DNA from: Microvelia longipes | Lineage: Eukaryota; Arthropoda; Insecta; Hemiptera; Veliidae | Length of the DNA: 64,000 bases | NCBI GenBank assembly: GCA_018340805.1 | Contig: JACMZG010000008.1 | Coordinates: forward strand, 14,792,261-14,856,260 | Direction: 5' to 3' | In this document: positions 5,117 to 60,479 of the stretch, in pieces | Layout: every line of letters begins with the position of its first letter | Position numbering within the stretch: position 1 is the stretch's first letter | Notes under the pieces: generated by a model | Databases searched by the model: none | Told to the model about the DNA's origin: nothing | Seen by the model: only the letters and a program-made list of their open reading frames with translations | Made by a program: the position numbers and the translations under genes

Positions 5117-5204
5117 AAGTTACATATATTTTACGAGATGGCAAAATGGATTTACCTAAGATGTCATAGAAATTTTTCACCTATTAAAACTTCTGGCGCG
5201 GTAG

Positions 5205-5465
5205 TCCGCATGTCAGACGAATTTTCTTTTGGAATGCGTGTTTCCGTGGTTAACAACCCATTTCTTGCTTAAGTTCAGGTTTATGCTATATAACCTAAGC
5301 ATGTACTCAATTATCAAGCACTACTCGTAACTATTTTTTGTATTTTTTAAAGGAAATGCGAATAATTATCCTATTGGTTGTGCAAAACTATGCCTCTAAA
5401 ATTGGCAGCGCACATCATTATTTGCACTATTTTAATGCTCAGTTGGTTTCATGGTTAGTTTCTTT
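5205..5465 (+). repeat. interspersed repeat R3, copy 1
   Basis: About 230 bp here match, in inverse orientation, 56262-56505. Shared landmarks in order are GGAATGCGT, CCCATTTCTTGCTTAAG, GGTTTATGCT, AATTATCC and CCTCTAAAATTGGCAG. No terminal repeats or coding potential are evident, so its class is unknown. Confidence 0.75.
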
Positions 5466-10494: not shown

Positions 10495-10807
10495 CATAGA
10501 GATATATACTAGAGGGGGCATAGCCTATCTAAATACATTGAGAGCCCTGAAACATCTTTTTGGGGCTCTCAGGGGCTCTGTGTAACCTCATTGAAACCTC
10601 CTTCAAGAGTGAGTTAAGGTTATAATTAATAAATGTACTTCTGTTCCCGCACATTGTTTGTGTGTTGATTTGTATTTTTAAAATTTACTATATAAGTTAT
10701 TGTAATTTTGCACTGATTATTTAATTATATTAATTAGCGAAGGTGGTCAGGTTACTTTTTCGATGTTTCAAAATTTAACCTATAGGCCCATCTAGTATAT
10801 CTCTATG
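10495..10807 (+). mobile_element. hAT-type MITE, copy 1
   Basis: A 313-bp non-coding element with terminal inverted repeats, CATAGAGATATATACTAG at the left and the inverse ending ATCTCTATG at the right. It is flanked by an exact 8-bp duplication, GCTCGACC (10487-10494 and 10808-10815). The 8-bp target site and the CA...TG ends suit a hAT-superfamily non-autonomous element. Two more copies are at 49871-50190 (inverse) and 51874-52214. Confidence 0.88.
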
Positions 10808-21690: not shown

Positions 21691-22011
21691 TAAAAGGAAT
21701 TGAAAGAAACAGTCTCTCCACTGATTTTAAAGATAATTTATAGACAGAGCCAGCTTTCAGTTTTAACAAACCATCATCAGTGCCGGCAAGTCAAGAAGAA
21801 AGAGTCAAGCAACAGGCATAATTGAGTTGTTCAAAGTGTTGAAACGAACTATGTTCGTTTCAACACTTTGAACAACTCAATTATGCCTGTTGCTTGACTC
21901 TTTCTTCTTGACTTGCCGGCACTGATGATGGTTTGTTAAAACTGAAAGCTGGCTCTGTCTATAAATTATCTTTAAAATCAGTGGAGAGACTGTTTCTTTC
22001 AATTCCTTTTA
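21691..22011. repeat. perfect 159-bp inverted repeat, 3-nt loop
   Basis: Bases 21691-21849 are the exact reverse complement of 21853-22011; the centre is TAT (21850-21852). I compared both arms base by base and found no mismatch. The sequence outside the arms does not pair. Each arm is GC-richer than the surroundings and reads, on the plus side of the right arm, through CACTGATGATGGTTTG and ACTGAAAGCTGGCTC. It has no reading frame of note. A transcript would fold into a 159-bp duplex. Alternatives are a foldback or head-to-head transposon terminus, a recent template-switch product, or an assembly or library artefact. Confidence 0.97.
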
Positions 22012-29712: not shown

Positions 29713-30126
29713 GTGTGTGTGTATGTATGTATATATGTAAAGTTACTTTCTTAATCATTCTTAAACATTCGCTTGAAAATAAAAAACACGAAAAAAGATA
29801 CAAAACCAAGATAAAATTAAAATGGTTGTATATTTTAAGGAACAAAGGAACAATATAAGTAATACCCTTAAGGCAGTCGTAGTACTTTTCTTACCCTCTC
29901 ATAAGTTTTCACTATTTTCCTGTGTCAGATCAAGTCTGTCTTGTTTTCTTAATTTGTCATAGGGCGCATTATGTTGCGCATTATGTTGCTCATTTCTAAT
30001 ATTTTTAGTTAAAAAATTAGAGTTAATTTAATTTAATTTTTTTTGTGTTGGTTGAAAGTATTGCAAAGCTCTATTGGTTATTTGTTCGGTATAACTAAGT
30101 GTATTTACATCACTATTTTTATACTA

Positions 30127-30444
30127 TTTATTGACTGTTGCTACTATTGAACTATTGACTGTTGTTGTATTGCTACTATGAACTATTGACTGTTGCTACT
30201 ATTGACTATTGACTGTTGACTATTGAACTATTGAACTATTGACTGTTGTGACTTTACTATTGAACTATTGACTGTTGCTACTATTGAACTATTGACTGTT
30301 GCTACTATTGAACTATTGACTGTTGCTACTATTGAACTATTGACTGTTGCTACTATTGAACTATTGACTGTTGCTACTATTGAACTGATTGATTGACTAT
30401 TGACTGTTGCTACTATTGAACTATTGACTGTTTACTATTGAACT
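30127..30444. repeat. minisatellite, 24-bp unit
   Basis: Repeats of CTATTGACTGTTGCTACTATTGAA, with shortened variants at the left edge. The central units are nearly identical. Confidence 0.93.
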
Positions 30445-30449
30445 AATGA

Positions 30450-38101: not shown

Positions 38102-38143
38102 GTGATATGAAATAAAGAGTCCAACTACTAAAATAGTTTCTTT
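38102..38143 (+). repeat. short repeat R5, copy 2
   Basis: Second copy of the 41-base phrase at 34795-34838, directly upstream of the minisatellite. Confidence 0.75.
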
Positions 38144-38144
38144 G

Positions 38145-38560
38145 CGTGCTGAACTCTATAATGTTGAATTCTATAACCGATTCTACATGGTTAGCAATAT
38201 CAGCTTCTATAATAAATTCTACATGGTTAGTAATATCAGCTTTTATAATAAATTCGACATGGTTAGTAATATCAGCTTCTATAATTAATTCTACATGGTT
38301 AGTAATGTTGGCCTCTTTAGTAGATTCTACATGGTTAGTAATGTCTGCCTCTTCAGTAGATTCTACATGGTTAGTAATGTTTGCCTCTTTAGTAGATTCT
38401 ACATTGTTGTAATGTTGGCCTCTTTAGTAAATTCTACATGTTTAGTATTGTCTGCCTTTACAGTAGATTCTACATGGTAAGTAATGTCGGGCTCCAGAAT
38501 AAGTTCTATTTTGTTAGTAATGTCGGCCTCTATAGTAAATTCTACGTGGTTAGTAATAAT
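38145..38560. repeat. minisatellite, 36-bp unit
   Basis: About eleven units of TCTACATGGTTAGTAATRTC followed by GCYTCTWTARTAAAT. Because 36 is divisible by three, a frame encoding a 12-residue repeat (STWLVISASIIN-like) stays open at 38146-38412. A one-base loss near 38407 shifts the frame, and there is no initiation or domain context, so it is not called a gene. Confidence 0.93.
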
Positions 38561-38569
38561 TTGGTTTTT

Positions 38570-39250
38570 GCAAAATCCAAATTAAAAATAAGTATCATGT
38601 TTCACTATTGCCCTCCACGGCACAAGAATATTCTTTTATTCTTTAGTGGAGGGATATACTATGTAAAAATATATATTAAAACTCTTGTAATGATAACTAA
38701 ATAAAGGTTTAAAAAAAAAAATTAATGTTTGATTGATATCAAACTTTTCAAACCAGTTCGTCGTAGTTGAAATGAGCTTATATATTTATGTTTAACTTTG
38801 CTTGTAATTTATGAATAATGTTTAGGTTATTAATATTATATGCTGATATTTTGGTTTTTTGTATCTTTCCATCAAATCAACTTAAATTTTCTTTATTTAA
38901 TTTACTTTTTTGCTTCGTTGCATTTCACGATTTAGCTTTTCAGAATTTTTCGTAAGCTACTACTAAAAGGGCACAAAACTATCATGCTAATAGACTATAA
39001 TAATATCTTTGCTGGAAGGTATAAATTGTACCTCCTATCGGGTGCCATTATATCCATATAACATAATTTGACAGGAAAATACTTTCAGTATTACATTTTG
39101 TTCCATCTGATATGAGAAAATCTTTTTCATGAGAGTTGTAGCTATTTGTATCAGTCTAAAGTCTAGAGGCAATCTCAAGTGTGGGTCCTATTACTCAAAG
39201 ACTTCATAAAAGTTTACTTCCATTATAAATCAATGTCTTGGTAAAGTTTA
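38570..39250. other. AT-rich, no gene seen
   Basis: A short inverted pair (CCCTCCAC near 38610 and GTGGAGGG near 38646) is the only local structure noted. Confidence 0.5.
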
Positions 39251-49870: not shown

Positions 49871-50190
49871 CATAGAGATATTATTACTAGAGAGACCCTA
49901 CAGTTTAAATTTTTAAAACATCGAAAAAGTAACCTGACCACCTCGCATATAAATACAATCTAATAATCAGTACAAAATTTCAGTAACTTATGTTGTAGAA
50001 CGTTAAAAATACAAATCACAACACATGCAATGTGCGGGAAGCTGAAAACAATTGGTTTATTATAACCTTATTTTAATCTTGGAGGAGGTTTCAATGAGGT
50101 TACACAGAGCCCCTGAGAGCCCCAAAAAGATGTTTCAGGCCTCTCAATGTAAGAAGATAGGCTATGTCCCCTCTATTATATATCTCTCAG
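49871..50190 (-). mobile_element. hAT-type MITE, copy 2 (inverse)
   Basis: Inverse orientation to copy 1. It is flanked by an exact 8-bp duplication, ATTTTTCC (49863-49870 and 50191-50198). Left end CATAGAGATATTATTACTAG; right end mutated to TATCTCTCAG. The interior shares GAGGTTTCAATGAGGTTACA and CCTGAGAGCCCC with the other copies. Confidence 0.88.
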
Positions 50191-51873: not shown

Positions 51874-52214
51874 CATACAGATATATACTAGAGGGGGCAT
51901 AGAGATACATATACTAGAAGGGGCATAGCCTATCTCAATACATGAAGAGGCCTGAAACATCTTTTTGGTGCTATCAGGGGGTCTGTGTAACCTCATTGAA
52001 ACCTCCTTCAAGAGTAAGTTTAATAATAAATAATCTTATTTCGGCTTTCAGCACATTGTTTGTGTTTTTGTTGTATTTCTAACATTCTACTATATAATTT
52101 GTTTTAATTTTGTACTTATTATTTGAGTATATTTATAAGTGAAGGTGGTCTGGTTACTTTTTCGATGTTTCAAAATTTAACCTATAGAGCCTCTCTAGTA
52201 ATAGTATCTCTATG
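51874..52214 (+). mobile_element. hAT-type MITE, copy 3
   Basis: Flanked by GTCAATAG (51866-51873) and GTCGATAG (52215-52222), an 8-bp duplication with one change. The left terminus is doubled: ATATATACTAGAGGGGGCAT is followed at once by ACATATACTAGAAGGGGCAT. This makes the copy about 28 bp longer than copy 1. The interior matches copy 1 throughout. Confidence 0.88.
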
Positions 52215-56261: not shown

Positions 56262-56505
56262 AAACACTAACTGAGCTTTAAACTTGTGCAAAAAATAGTG
56301 CGCACTGCCAATTTTAGAGGCCTAGTTTTGTATAACCAACTGGATAATTATGCGAATTTTTTAAAAATACAGACGAAATGAGTTACGAGCTTAAGGAACT
56401 GCTTAAGTATAAAGCATAAACCGGAACCTTAAGCAAGAAATGGGGTGTTAAGCACGCAAATACGCATTCCAAAGGAAATTGGTCCCGGTATGTGGACCAC
56501 GGTGC
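56262..56505 (-). repeat. interspersed repeat R3, inverse copy
   Basis: Matches 5205-5465 in inverse orientation over about 240 bp. It ends about 420 bp from the stop codon of the NACHT gene and just beyond its likely poly(A) signal. Confidence 0.75.
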
Positions 56506-56667
56506 CAGAATTATTTATTCATAACTACAATAATTTACTTTTAGATTTTTTTATAATATATTTATTGCAATTATGTTTACAAAATTTTAATAAATATTTA
56601 AAATTACCCAAGATGTTAGAAATTTGTAAGGTGGTTCAATACGATGTAAAAAACCGTTTAGTTTTTT

Positions 56668-56924: not shown

Positions 56925-59900
56925 CTACCCATCAAGTACAACATATACTTCTTCTTTCATCTTTAACACTTCTTGATCATCTAAAAATTTAACGTTTCTA
57001 TCAACTACTTTCATAAAATAATTAAACGTTTTAGGTTTTTGATATTTTAATTCTCTGAGTTGAAGAGTTAAAAATTGTCTAACTAACGAATATTCCTTTT
57101 TTGTTAGTACTGCATTAAAAGTTGTGAAATAGAATTCGTTATTTTTGATTTTTATCAGGAAATTTGAAAGGAAATACTCAGCGAAACTACGATGACTGAA
57201 GCGTAGCTGTTGATTACTATAATTGACGATGCCAATCCTGCTGATTTCGTCGCATCCATCTTTATCCTTTTCTTTTAAAAGATTAATAAAACTATTTAAC
57301 TCTTTAAGTTTTTTCTTCTCTGTAAATTCTGGCATGAGGACAGGCAAGGCTAGTTCTGCGTGTATTTTATTCAATTTATCTTCAAATAAAATATCCTTGA
57401 CGGTTTGAGATTGGTTACCCGACACCCCCAAACACTTCTCGCCGTTATACTTCTTCCACTTAATATCCACAAATGCTTTATAAAGAGTTAACAAATTGAT
57501 TTGCCCTTTTGTCATACTGCTTCGGTCGTCACCAAATATTTCCATCAACATAAATAAATGAAGGGGAATCCGAGAAAATGAATCGTCGTTTAATTCTTTA
57601 TCGACTCTTTTTATTTTTTCTTCTATTTCTGACTTCCTTACATTATTTATACGTTGATTTTTTAAATATTCTTCAATTATGTACTCTCGATTTTCGTTTG
57701 TTAGTAGATCCAACTGTAAAGACATTGTCTGTAGCTGTTTCTCCAAGTCTTGTCGCGTACTGTGTCTCGTAGTTACTAGGGTTGAAAAGGCTGGATTATT
57801 ACAGACGGCTTTAATAATTTTCAATGTATTTTCTTTATAAGCTGGCGAAATTTCGTCAAAGCCGTCAAATAAAAAGAAGATTTCAGGCGTTGACTTAATA
57901 TTTCGCGACTTACTCTGTATTTTGTTAAATAGAAGCTGTTGTTCAAATATGCGTTTTTTTTCTGAAGTCTCTCTTTGCAATATCATCTTAAATAAATGTT
58001 GAATTAGATGTGCCTCTTCGTCGTCGCGTATGCTATTGTTATTACTCTTAATATTATTCAGATTATATTTCTTATTTTCGTCTGCAAACTTATTTAACTT
58101 AACCACATACACCCAACTTGATGGATGATTGGTTTTTATTTTTCTCCCAATTGTTCTTATAAATGTGCTTTTACCGAAACCTGGGTTGTTTGAAATTATA
58201 CAAACCCGATTTTCTCGAAGAATATCAATCACATTAATATCCTTTATTGTTCCGGGTGAGTTTGATTCGTATATGAAATTATTAAGCAGGGAATGATCTT
58301 CTGTTGAATCTTTCCAACGAAACAGTGCTGTTTTTCCTTGTACTTTTGCTAATTCTAACCAATGAATATTAGACACATCTTTGTTATTTGAAATAAATTG
58401 TTGCCAATTTTGCCGTGTGATTGGCTCTTTCAGAGTAACTATTTTTATGGTCTTATTTATTCTTTTACCCTCTATACTTTTCCAATTTTCGAGTGTTAAT
58501 TTACTGATTTCGTTTTCTAAACTTTCGACGTCTTTTTTGTCACATCTAGAAGTGGGTTTGAAACCAGTTAGCAAGAGCACATTGTCACCCAGTTGATTTT
58601 CTTTTAAGTTCATTAAGTCCAACTTTACCTTTTGCGATGAAAGCGTTCTTTCTACATAAATTATTTTTTTGCCTTTGCCGCGTTTTTCACTAACATAATC
58701 GTAAGAATCTCCAATCTCCAATTTATTGTTTAATATTTTCGTCAATATTTCTGAATCTATTAGTTCGTCTGCTTCGTTCTCATTTATGATTTGGTTAATT
58801 TTAATTTGTTTTCCCTGAAATAAAATTCCTTTATTTATGATTAATATTTTGGATGTTTCTTGTAAATCAGAAAATTTGAATGAGTATGAAGTACTTAGAG
58901 ACGGTAATTTTTGGACCAAATTATTAGATAATTCTATGTTTGGTTTCAAAATAAGTATTATTTTATTTTTAAAATTATTGTCTTTATGTTGATTAAGAAT
59001 TTCTATCAGGTTTTCGCAAACATTATCTATCGCATTTTTATCCAAATCGTTATTTTCTTTTAAAACTAATAATGCAAGTAGATTGTGAGAATTGCTATGC
59101 TTAAAAGCATTTAAAATATAATTACATTTTCTTACGTCGTCTAAAATGTTTTTTAATCTAGTTACGATGAAATTATCTTCCTGAGAGTAATATGCCGACA
59201 CGTCGACTTGCTGGCATATCAAATTCAAACAGAGCACCGGATCGTCCGACTTGACTTCAAGAATAATATGTACCTCGTCTTCCAAGAACTTTTTAACCTC
59301 GATTCCAAAATCAAGTTCTTTTTTAAAAACTAAATTTCTGTCCATCAATTCTGACTTTAAGTGTTGACTCATACCTGTGACCACACAATTAGTATATATC
59401 TTATGTAAATCCTCTAAAAGATCAGTTGCCCTATCTTCCGTCATAACCTCTAATGTTGGGTGACTCCTGATGTTTAGCCATCGAATGATTTTAGATTGGA
59501 ACGAGTCGCTGAGATTTTCTGGATCTAACAGTCTAAACTTCTCCCCTATCTTGCAATTCACGAGTGATCTCATATCTTTATCATCAGGGAGATGTGTTAC
59601 AAATGTAAAGCGTTCCTTAAAGTTGTCGAATTGCTTATTAACATTTTCCCACTCAAAAAATAAATTAAAAAATGGATCTAAATCCTCTTCTGTTTTACAT
59701 CTTTGAAGTTCTGTTAAACATGGTAAAAAAGTGTCTAACAGATTATTTGTCCATGTGTTCTTATCGTTTTTACAGTATTCTAAAAAGGTAACTGGAAATT
59801 GGTTTTGATTGATATAGGCGAGAATTTTTTTTGACGATAGTATCTTTTTAAGCGCCATATTTCTAATGACAGTTACGTCGAATTTGATTTTATAGCATTG

Positions 59901-60479
59901 AGTACTGGCTAACAATACGTGGTGGTTATTTATGTGTAAAGGTGTTTCTAAGAGGACCTGGTTATCTACTTTAGTAAGAATATCATTTATCTTGTCGCAT
60001 TCATTTATTACAGTATTGGTCAATACATATAACTGTTTATTGGAAACGTCATTAAACAAATCATTTTTATCCAATTTCCTATAAGACAAAAAATATTGTA
60101 TAATGCTAAAGGGATTTTTATTAGTTTTCATAAGATGTTCGTATTTGATTTGACCCATTGTCACAATGTCTTTTTTGTGTTTAACTTGTATGAACGATCC
60201 GGTCCGATCATTTTCATTCTTTAATATCATGATGACATCGTCCAACTGGCCGCAACCAGACGTCTCCGATAAAAGACTGAAAGGACAATTTTTCTCAGCA
60301 GCCCATAGTATATAATACATTATAATATAAAGTTGATATAAAATTCCGTGAATTGATGCTGCCATACCTGTAGCCTTATATTCAGTTTTATATGAATGTT
60401 CGTGGGCTTGATTCATACCATCGCTTGCTCCTGTAAAACTCTCTGGACAATCTACACTAGTAGATGACTTCTTTGACAT
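56925..60479 (-). CDS. NACHT-domain protein with nuclease-like N-terminus
   Basis: An uninterrupted 1184-codon frame. Residues 45-49 (GILYQ), D80-D81 and Q98-V-K100 follow the GxxYQ...(D)D...QVK order of PD-(D/E)XK nucleases of the DUF4297/Cap4 type; this assignment is tentative. A long middle region (about 270-740) is alpha-rich with ILFQGKQI (552-559), a phrase I associate with arthropod NACHT proteins. NACHT ATPase: P-loop NNPGFGKST (764-772, Asn for the usual first Gly), Walker B FFLFDGFDE (868-876), sensor-like TTR (903-905), IPL near 971-973. RFSHRSFAEYF (1093-1103) marks the helical tail. No ankyrin, LRR or WD repeats follow. The start ATG (AAA ATG context) has an in-frame stop seven codons upstream (60498-60500). 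No signal peptide is seen, so it is probably cytosolic. It is likely an NTP-driven sensor of the STAND class; its ligand is unknown. Confidence 0.88.
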   Translation of the reverse strand: MSKKSSTSVDCPESFTGASDGMNQAHEHSYKTEYKATGMAASIHGILYQLYIIMYYILWAAEKNCPFSLLSETSGCGQLDDVIMILKNENDRTGSFIQVKHKKDIVTMGQIKYEHLMKTNKNPFSIIQYFLSYRKLDKNDLFNDVSNKQLYVLTNTVINECDKINDILTKVDNQVLLETPLHINNHHVLLASTQCYKIKFDVTVIRNMALKKILSSKKILAYINQNQFPVTFLEYCKNDKNTWTNNLLDTFLPCLTELQRCKTEEDLDPFFNLFFEWENVNKQFDNFKERFTFVTHLPDDKDMRSLVNCKIGEKFRLLDPENLSDSFQSKIIRWLNIRSHPTLEVMTEDRATDLLEDLHKIYTNCVVTGMSQHLKSELMDRNLVFKKELDFGIEVKKFLEDEVHIILEVKSDDPVLCLNLICQQVDVSAYYSQEDNFIVTRLKNILDDVRKCNYILNAFKHSNSHNLLALLVLKENNDLDKNAIDNVCENLIEILNQHKDNNFKNKIILILKPNIELSNNLVQKLPSLSTSYSFKFSDLQETSKILIINKGILFQGKQIKINQIINENEADELIDSEILTKILNNKLEIGDSYDYVSEKRGKGKKIIYVERTLSSQKVKLDLMNLKENQLGDNVLLLTGFKPTSRCDKKDVESLENEISKLTLENWKSIEGKRINKTIKIVTLKEPITRQNWQQFISNNKDVSNIHWLELAKVQGKTALFRWKDSTEDHSLLNNFIYESNSPGTIKDINVIDILRENRVCIISNNPGFGKSTFIRTIGRKIKTNHPSSWVYVVKLNKFADENKKYNLNNIKSNNNSIRDDEEAHLIQHLFKMILQRETSEKKRIFEQQLLFNKIQSKSRNIKSTPEIFFLFDGFDEISPAYKENTLKIIKAVCNNPAFSTLVTTRHSTRQDLEKQLQTMSLQLDLLTNENREYIIEEYLKNQRINNVRKSEIEEKIKRVDKELNDDSFSRIPLHLFMLMEIFGDDRSSMTKGQINLLTLYKAFVDIKWKKYNGEKCLGVSGNQSQTVKDILFEDKLNKIHAELALPVLMPEFTEKKKLKELNSFINLLKEKDKDGCDEISRIGIVNYSNQQLRFSHRSFAEYFLSNFLIKIKNNEFYFTTFNAVLTKKEYSLVRQFLTLQLRELKYQKPKTFNYFMKVVDRNVKFLDDQEVLKMKEEVYVVLDG

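What the first reader, a model, noticed from the sequence alone, without database searches (positions are those of the whole stretch)
56925..60479. Eukaryotic NACHT protein whose N-terminus looks like a PD-(D/E)XK nuclease effector
Seen: residues 45-49 GILYQ, D80-D81 and Q98-V-K100 are placed as in DUF4297/Cap4-type nucleases, followed by a canonical NACHT (GFGKST at 767-772, FDGFDE at 871-876). Known: bacterial NLR-like defence proteins pair NACHT or related STAND ATPases with nuclease domains. Inferred: this gene could be an animal immune sensor that cuts nucleic acid on activation, an architecture unlike classical death-domain or pyrin NLRs. The frame is intact within a repeat-rich, otherwise decayed neighbourhood, which suggests it is maintained.
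Basis: partly seen in the sequence, partly recalled or inferred. Interest (0 to 1): 0.82.

Follow-up and report, generated by a model that had tools for sequence, protein, structure and literature searches.

The report
Insect immune-like switch with bacterial nuclease
This insect gene joins a predicted nucleic-acid-cutting domain of the kind bacteria use against phages to an NLR-type molecular switch, and the same genome holds relatives carrying the same domain on other switches, which hints at a little-described branch of insect intracellular immunity.

Summary
Window 56925-60479 (minus strand) is one uninterrupted 1184-residue frame; the next longest stop-free stretch in the window is 130 codons. 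The NACHT domain is real (Pfam E 2.9e-11). The N-terminal domain matches the anti-phage nuclease profiles LmuA (3.1e-8) and CBASS endonuclease effector (8.8e-6); 0 of 5 scrambled controls matched. G45, Q49, E72, D80, D81, Q98 and K100 are identical in 23 of 23 Cap4 domains aligned, Y48 in 22 of 23. In the insect's own seven copies all are kept in 7 of 7, except Q49 in 6 of 7. Profile-profile comparison gives E 1.6e-5, above all 100 column shuffles. The host is a 664 Mb insect genome with at least nine related genes or remnants: the nuclease is joined to NACHT, NACHT-ankyrin, NACHT with a membrane-like tail, or an NB-ARC-like NTPase with TPRs. Comparison with the closest paralogue suggests purifying selection (dN/dS about 0.35). 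Structure prediction was too weak to prove the fold, and no function was tested. Most likely it is a STAND sensor whose activation switches on a nuclease: a new variant of a known kind.

The parts
56925..60479 (-). uninterrupted ORF, 1184 aa: nuclease domain, middle region, NACHT, short C-terminal part
   Evidence: one open frame; next longest stop-to-stop stretch in the window is 130 codons. No transcript data
59811..60374 (-). residues 36-223, PD-(D/E)XK-type nuclease domain related to Cap4 and LmuA
60333..60347 (-). residues 45-49 GILYQ, conserved first-helix motif (HG..YQ in Cap4)
   Evidence: G and Q in 23 of 23 Cap4, Y in 22 of 23 (F in L037); in insect copies G and Y 7 of 7, Q 6 of 7
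60264..60266 (-). E72, eight residues before D80 as in Cap4
   Evidence: identical in 23 of 23 Cap4 and 7 of 7 insect domains
60237..60242 (-). D80-D81, predicted metal-binding acid(s)
   Evidence: identical in 23 of 23 Cap4 and 7 of 7 insect domains
60177..60188 (-). Q98-V-K100-H101, predicted (D/E/Q)xK catalytic motif
   Evidence: Q and K identical in 23 of 23 Cap4 and 7 of 7 insect domains; H101 in 7 of 7 insect domains, whereas in Cap4 the H is one residue later
58245..59810 (-). residues 224-745, middle region without a known family (possible sensor or linker)
   Evidence: (residues 321-749 scanned): no PADLOC hit and only a chance-level Pfam hit; aligns along NACHT paralogues
57657..58208 (-). 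residues 758-941, NACHT NTPase
   Evidence: Pfam PF05729 E 2.9e-11
58164..58181 (-). Walker A GFGKST 767-772
   Evidence: G767, G769, K770, S771, T772 invariant in the 4 NACHT members aligned
57852..57869 (-). Walker B FDGFDE 871-876
   Evidence: D872-E876 invariant in the 4 aligned
57168..57194 (-). HRSFAEYFL 1096-1104, conserved motif of the post-NACHT region
   Evidence: invariant in the 4 aligned except F1099 (Y in L010)

Best explanation
The gene encodes an insect NLR-like switch. An N-terminal Cap4/LmuA-type PD-(D/E)XK nuclease is the effector, a NACHT STAND ATPase is the oligomerising switch, and the middle or C-terminal region senses or holds it off. At rest ADP-bound NACHT keeps the nuclease apart. 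On ligand binding (most likely a sign of virus or other intracellular invader) nucleotide exchange and oligomerisation bring nuclease domains together, and they cut nucleic acid (DNA most likely), destroying the invader's genome or killing the cell. Shown here: the frame, the NACHT, the nuclease homology with conserved catalytic residues, a sign of purifying selection, and a gene family that joins the same nuclease to different STAND modules. Inferred: catalytic activity, DNA as substrate, oligomerisation, ligand and immune role. I put the nuclease homology at about 0.93 and the full mechanism at about 0.6.
For: Nuclease: profiles, controls; single place in the whole genome; of 177635 PDB sequences the best match to the five-row profile is a Cap4, collinear motifs, although E is only 0.71; hhalign E 1.6e-5, score 40.7 against at most 22.5 in 100 shuffles; seven residues identical in 23 of 23 Cap4, Y48 in 22 of 23; Cap4 domains hit the same PADLOC models: 22 of 22 the effector model, 7 of 22 LmuA. 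Switch. Family and different switches. Selection. Insect host.
Against: No confident structure: single-sequence model pLDDT 36.3; model with 24 sequences pLDDT 46.6, pTM 0.31; Foldseek found nothing at E <= 0.001, and the 50 rows listed of 313 are mostly PCNA, with no restriction-type nuclease evident. Four of six paralogue nuclease domains gave no PADLOC hit on their own. Profile A2 did not recover Cap4 from the PDB. hhalign probability is 79 for the family, and only 13 (E 0.0022) for the window's domain alone. There are no expression, infection or biochemical data. The C-terminus lacks the LRR, ankyrin or TPR repeats expected of a typical sensor.
Confidence: 0.6

Rival explanations
1. The N-terminal domain keeps the nuclease fold but not the activity, and serves as a nucleic-acid-binding sensor or an adaptor in an otherwise signalling NLR.
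For: Degenerate relatives exist: P0001 has D, N and E in place of E72, D81 and K100. The insect motif puts H directly after K (QVKH), whereas Cap4 has it one residue later.
Against: All seven insect copies keep E72, D80, D81, Q98 and K100 although the six others are only 18-50% identical to the window's domain, as expected for a selected active site.
Confidence: 0.18
2. An active nuclease-NACHT protein with a house-keeping or genome-defence role (for example against transposons) rather than anti-pathogen immunity.
For: The gene lies in repeat-rich DNA. The ligand is unknown.
Against: Low copy number, diverse repeat domains and a truncated copy fit a birth-and-death immune family better; this is not decisive.
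Confidence: 0.13
3. The nuclease resemblance is chance in an AT-rich, lysine- and asparagine-rich protein.
For: No Pfam model reaches its cut-off for the domain in the window protein. NCBIfam lists nothing. No homologue found at the thresholds used with the single sequence among 5.8 billion proteins.
Against: Controls 0 of 5; 100 column shuffles; matching invariant residues. Pfam also gives nothing at E <= 0.01 for 22 of 22 bacterial Cap4 domains, so its silence says nothing.
Confidence: 0.05
4. A bacterial contaminant or a decayed gene.
For: Uninterrupted frame; surroundings without other long frames.
Against: It lies in a 92.9 Mb contig of an insect genome, has paralogues on several contigs, an intact frame and dN/dS of about 0.35.
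Confidence: 0.03

Closest known systems
CBASS effector Cap4 (DUF4297-type nuclease plus SAVED domain), e.g. PDB 7yib
   Same: N-terminal nuclease with HG..YQ, E-x7-(L/F)DDV and QxK in the same order; E-to-D spacing is 8 in both
   Different: Cap4 is switched on by a cyclic nucleotide bound to SAVED (recalled). No SAVED part is matched here; the switch is a NACHT
Lamassu LmuA / DUF4297 nuclease
   Same: Best profile hit of the domain (E 3.1e-8)
   Different: LmuA works with the SMC-like LmuB (recalled); here nuclease and STAND NTPase are one protein in an insect
Bacterial NLR-like defence proteins (Avs, bNACHT with nuclease effectors)
   Same: Same plan: N-terminal nuclease, STAND ATPase, C-terminal region; module swapping (comparison recalled, not run)
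   Different: Bacterial; not aligned here. The insect family uses ankyrin or NPHP3-like TPR repeats in some members
Animal NLRs (NLRP, NOD, NLRC4)
   Same: NACHT with Walker A and Walker B
   Different: No death-fold domain and no LRR among the Pfam hits; the effector looks like an enzyme
SAMD9 family
   Same: Animal STAND-like protein with N-terminal nucleic-acid-related domains and TPR repeats (PMC5445408, abstract and three passages seen)
   Different: AlbA and Sir2-like domains instead of a Cap4-type nuclease; a passage states that SAMD9 orthologues are missing in arthropods

Membership tests
Cap4/LmuA (DUF4297-type) PD-(D/E)XK nuclease domain | catalytic motif: acid(s) and QxK or ExK in register with family members | tested here: met
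   E72, D80, D81, Q98, K100 identical in 23 of 23 Cap4 and 7 of 7 insect domains
Cap4/LmuA (DUF4297-type) PD-(D/E)XK nuclease domain | significant sequence-profile similarity | tested here: met
   four of six paralogue domains give no PADLOC hit singly, and the window's domain alone against the Cap4 profile reaches only E 0.0022
Cap4/LmuA (DUF4297-type) PD-(D/E)XK nuclease domain | restriction-endonuclease fold | tested here: inconclusive
   helix-strand-strand-strand-helix-strand order, D80/81 at the start of strand 2 and K100 at the end of strand 3, but pLDDT 46.6; no match at E <= 0.001
Cap4/LmuA (DUF4297-type) PD-(D/E)XK nuclease domain | metal-dependent DNA cleavage | not testable with these tools
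   bench assay needed
CBASS Cap4 protein | SAVED domain after the nuclease | tested here: not met
   (profiles only): the SAVED_PDDEXK model is matched over positions 6-103 of 485, its nuclease part
Lamassu | LmuB SMC-like partner gene next to LmuA | tested here: inconclusive
   no other ORF of 150 aa or more in the window, but short exons could hide a gene and no SMC search was run
NACHT STAND ATPase | NACHT profile with intact Walker A and Walker B | tested here: met
Classical animal NLR | death-fold or pyrin N-terminus and C-terminal LRRs | tested here: not met
   none among the 5 Pfam families listed at E <= 10

The most novel reading that the evidence does not exclude
Insects carry a branch of intracellular immune receptors whose effector is a CBASS/Lamassu-type nuclease, shuffled among NACHT-ankyrin, membrane-anchored NACHT and NB-ARC-TPR switches. 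These receptors would destroy viral or self DNA directly on activation, with no inflammasome step, as bacterial Avs and CBASS effectors do.
Probability: 0.5. Interest if true: 0.86.

Novelty: new variant of a known kind. Interest (0 to 1): 0.73.

Why it matters
As I recall, insects are usually said to do without NLR-type immunity, and SAMD9, an animal STAND protein, is reported missing from arthropods (PMC5445408, passages seen). A low-copy family that couples a bacterial-type defence nuclease to NACHT and NB-ARC-like switches would give insects direct-acting NLR-like effectors. It would also supply concrete, testable residues (D80, D81, Q98, K100; K770) for asking whether an animal NLR-like protein cuts nucleic acid.

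Tried and rejected
Homologue searches: 5.8 billion proteins with the whole protein (the 7992 candidates sharing most words scored, none at E <= 0.001), with residues 36-270 (876 candidates, none at E <= 1) and with alignment A2 (5221 candidates, one protein at E <= 10: P0001, E 8.1e-4). IMG/VR with the protein and with L008: none; with Cap4 domains L058 (3 loci, one used) and L043 (none). Plasmids and phages by tblastn: only matches at E 3 or worse, or none. PDB by single sequence: chance matches only; by profile A2 only a phage protein at E 0.62; by profile A1 Cap4 first at E 0.71 and an unrelated carboxypeptidase at 1.3. NCBIfam: nothing. PHROGs: three families at E 0.026-0.069. Pfam: no model for the domain above cut-off in the window protein; among the seven insect domains each match is seen in 1 of 7, the best an Ig-CFAP74 model at 5.3e-4. 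Pfam gives nothing at E <= 0.01 for 22 of 22 bacterial Cap4 domains. Rfam and tRNA scans of the window: nothing.

Structure: single sequence and 24-row alignment both low confidence; the Foldseek result is therefore treated as uninformative, neither for nor against. The second alignment consists mostly of Cap4, so its secondary structure is not independent evidence.

Contamination and pseudogene readings were rejected.

Literature: ten searches of the open-licence PMC library. Three returned none. In the rows listed by the others (one search listed 20 of 2255, 15 of 5662, 15 of 121, 7 of 8) no title or abstract start describes a Cap4/DUF4297-type nuclease fused to NACHT in insects. This is not proof that none exists. 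My memory is that similar uncharacterised proteins occur in many arthropod genomes; no call tested that.

Not reached: the number of NACHT domains in the genome (PF05729), a PF14130 search, and paralogue searches with L023 and L009. The genome search was busy. The family count is therefore a lower bound.
Full report
OBSERVATION. The frame 56925-60479 (minus strand) encodes 1184 residues without a stop. It is the only ORF of 150 aa or more in the 64 kb, and the next longest stop-free stretch is 130 codons. Pfam finds NACHT at residues 758-941, E 2.9e-11.

IS THE N-TERMINUS A NUCLEASE? With residues 36-223 alone, PADLOC-DB gives LmuA at E 3.1e-8 (residues 41-201), a CBASS effector endonuclease at 8.8e-6 and a SAVED_PDDEXK model at 0.02. 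With the whole protein LmuA is not listed; the effector model (1.9e-4) and a model over the P-loop (mad8, 0.0037) are. The reversed domain and four shuffles gave 0 hits in 5. Searching the whole 664.6 Mb host genome in six frames with the LmuA model reports one place, this gene, at E 8.5e-5 (2 candidates scored), and nothing in 14 control genomes. Cap4 domains hit the same models: at E <= 0.01, 22 of 22 hit the effector model PDLC00741 and 7 of 22 hit LmuA. The insect domain's LmuA score lies within their range: the first Cap4 reaches 6.1e-6, the best 7.7e-10. Of six paralogue domains scanned singly, two hit such models (L012 effector 6.5e-4; L011 SAVED_PDDEXK 7.9e-6) and four hit none.

Profile A1, built from five insect domains, was compared with 177635 PDB sequences. 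The best match was 7yib chain A, CD-NTase-associated protein 4. Its E-value is weak (0.71), but the motifs are collinear: HG..YQ, E-x7-DDV and QxK. The longer, looser profile A2 did not recover it. From the printed Cap4 fragment I fetched 35 bacterial loci and aligned 22 Cap4 nuclease domains (A4). The 13 left out were close duplicates, short or broken frames and one Brucella record. hhalign of the seven-row insect alignment A3 against A4 gives probability 79, E 1.6e-5, score 40.7. One hundred column shuffles reach at most 22.5, and the reversed profile reaches 10.0. The window's domain alone against A4 reaches only probability 13, E 0.0022. The joint alignment A6 holds 21 of the A4 domains and one IMG/VR domain, L062; L037 was left out because its translation contains an X. 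There G45, Y48, Q49, E72, D80, D81, Q98 and K100 are identical in 22 of 22. Counting L037 from A4, which has F for Y48, seven residues are identical in 23 of 23 and Y48 in 22 of 23. In the seven insect domains all eight are kept in 7 of 7 except Q49 in 6 of 7. The H after K (H101) is in 7 of 7 insect domains; Cap4 has the histidine one residue later.

STRUCTURE. Two predictions were made. The single sequence (residues 1-320) gave pLDDT 36.3. Window residues 36-270 with P0001 and the 22 Cap4 domains of A6 gave pLDDT 46.6, pTM 0.31; the elements include H4-27, E32-38, E44-53, E56-65, H78-82, H91-103, E114-116. Apart from the short H78-82 this is the order of the PD-(D/E)XK core (order recalled), with D80/D81 opening strand 2 and K100 closing strand 3. 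Because the alignment is mostly Cap4 and the confidence is low, this is consistency, not proof. Foldseek gave 313 matches at E <= 10 and none at E <= 0.001; the 50 listed are mostly PCNA, with no restriction-type nuclease evident.

A FAMILY IN ONE INSECT. The window is G000:C1361:14792261-14856260 of a 664.6 Mb genome; the contig is 92.9 Mb. The 7tm_6 family (insect odorant receptors, recalled) gives 43 matches there and none in 14 controls. Two paralogue searches (8 matches, 9) resolve, with the fetched regions, into nine genes or remnants. (1) The window gene. (2) L012, 55% identical, 1221-codon frame, with a strongly hydrophobic C-terminal tail (mean hydropathy 2.64 over 19 residues; the window's best is 1.38). 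(3) L010, 1565 codons, NACHT plus a long C-terminal region with no Pfam repeat. (4) L009, 2221 codons, NACHT plus many ankyrin repeats. (5) L013, a fragment about 80 kb from L012. (6) L011, 1505 codons, an NB-ARC/AAA-like NTPase plus NPHP3-like TPRs. (7) L023, the same plan, two frames. (8) L024, the same plan, split over three frames. (9) L025, 1185 codons, the NTPase and TPR-like repeats, no nuclease match. Pfam was run on L009-L012 only; the NB-ARC and AAA scores of L011 are below Pfam's cut-offs. The NTPases of L023, L024 and L025 are assigned by similarity to L011 (46, 38 and 46% identity) and their TPRs by eye. Seven of the nine carry the nuclease domain and all seven were aligned. The nuclease of the NACHT-ankyrin gene L009 is 42% identical to that of L011 but 33% to the window's. 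So the nuclease has been combined with at least two kinds of switch. The seven-leaf tree groups the NB-ARC-like trio (97/97), so one change of switch would suffice; two of its four inner branches are drawn open and two end branches are long.

SELECTION. Window against L012: dN 0.31, dS 0.88, ratio 0.35. By domain: nuclease 0.32, middle 0.44, NACHT 0.21, C-terminus 0.32 (Nei-Gojobori; dS near 1, so approximate). The truncated L013 against L012 gives about 0.6 and 0.34 for its two pieces.

MECHANISM. By analogy with STAND proteins and Cap4 (established knowledge, recalled), the NACHT is expected to oligomerise on ligand binding and to bring nuclease domains together. Shown: both modules, with conserved catalytic and Walker motifs. 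Inferred: activity, substrate, trigger and immune purpose. The 520-residue middle region aligns along the NACHT paralogues but matches nothing known; it may be the sensor or the inhibitory clamp.

KNOWN OR NEW. Nuclease-STAND fusions are known in bacteria (recalled). In animals, SAMD9 is a STAND-like protein with AlbA and Sir2-like domains, reported missing from arthropods (PMC5445408, abstract and three passages). PMC8195603 (12 of 15 places found by search terms were seen) reports REase effectors in bacterial systems; no passage I saw describes this insect architecture. In PMC9815663, on effectors of fungal NLRs, 'nuclease' does not occur in the main text. In PMC4833078, on arthropod immune genes, 'NACHT', 'NLR' and 'NOD-like' do not occur in the main text. 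PMC12948488 was seen in 12 of 16 passages and PMC12758981 in passages; neither bears on this. Ten searches of the open-licence PMC library listed no description of it (calls in Tried and rejected). I therefore call it a new variant of a known kind. Domain and architecture are well supported; function is open.

Noticed in passing
21691-22011: Perfect inverted repeat: arms of 159 nt, 100% complementary, 3 nt apart; a fold-back element or an assembly artefact.
   Followed up: no
38122-38587: Tandem array with a mostly 36-nt period.
   Followed up: no
30118-30446: Minisatellite with mostly 24-nt spacing.
   Followed up: no
10498-10785, 50051-50188, 51902-52187: Dispersed repeat in three copies, two direct and one inverted.
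   Followed up: no
5183-5447 and 56266-56518: Inverted pair of a dispersed element; the second copy lies about 0.4 kb beyond the gene's stop codon.
   Followed up: no
L012:3898-7560 (minus): Closest paralogue has a membrane-anchor-like C-terminal tail that the window protein lacks.
   Followed up: partly
L025:4399-7953 (plus): NB-ARC-like NTPase with TPR-like repeats and no nuclease match, so the effector seems to have been lost or gained in this family.
   Followed up: no
P0001: JGI metagenome protein of 366 aa, the only profile hit among 5221 candidates of the 5.8 billion-protein search; matches LmuA (4e-5), but E72, D81 and K100 are replaced by D, N and E.
   Followed up: partly
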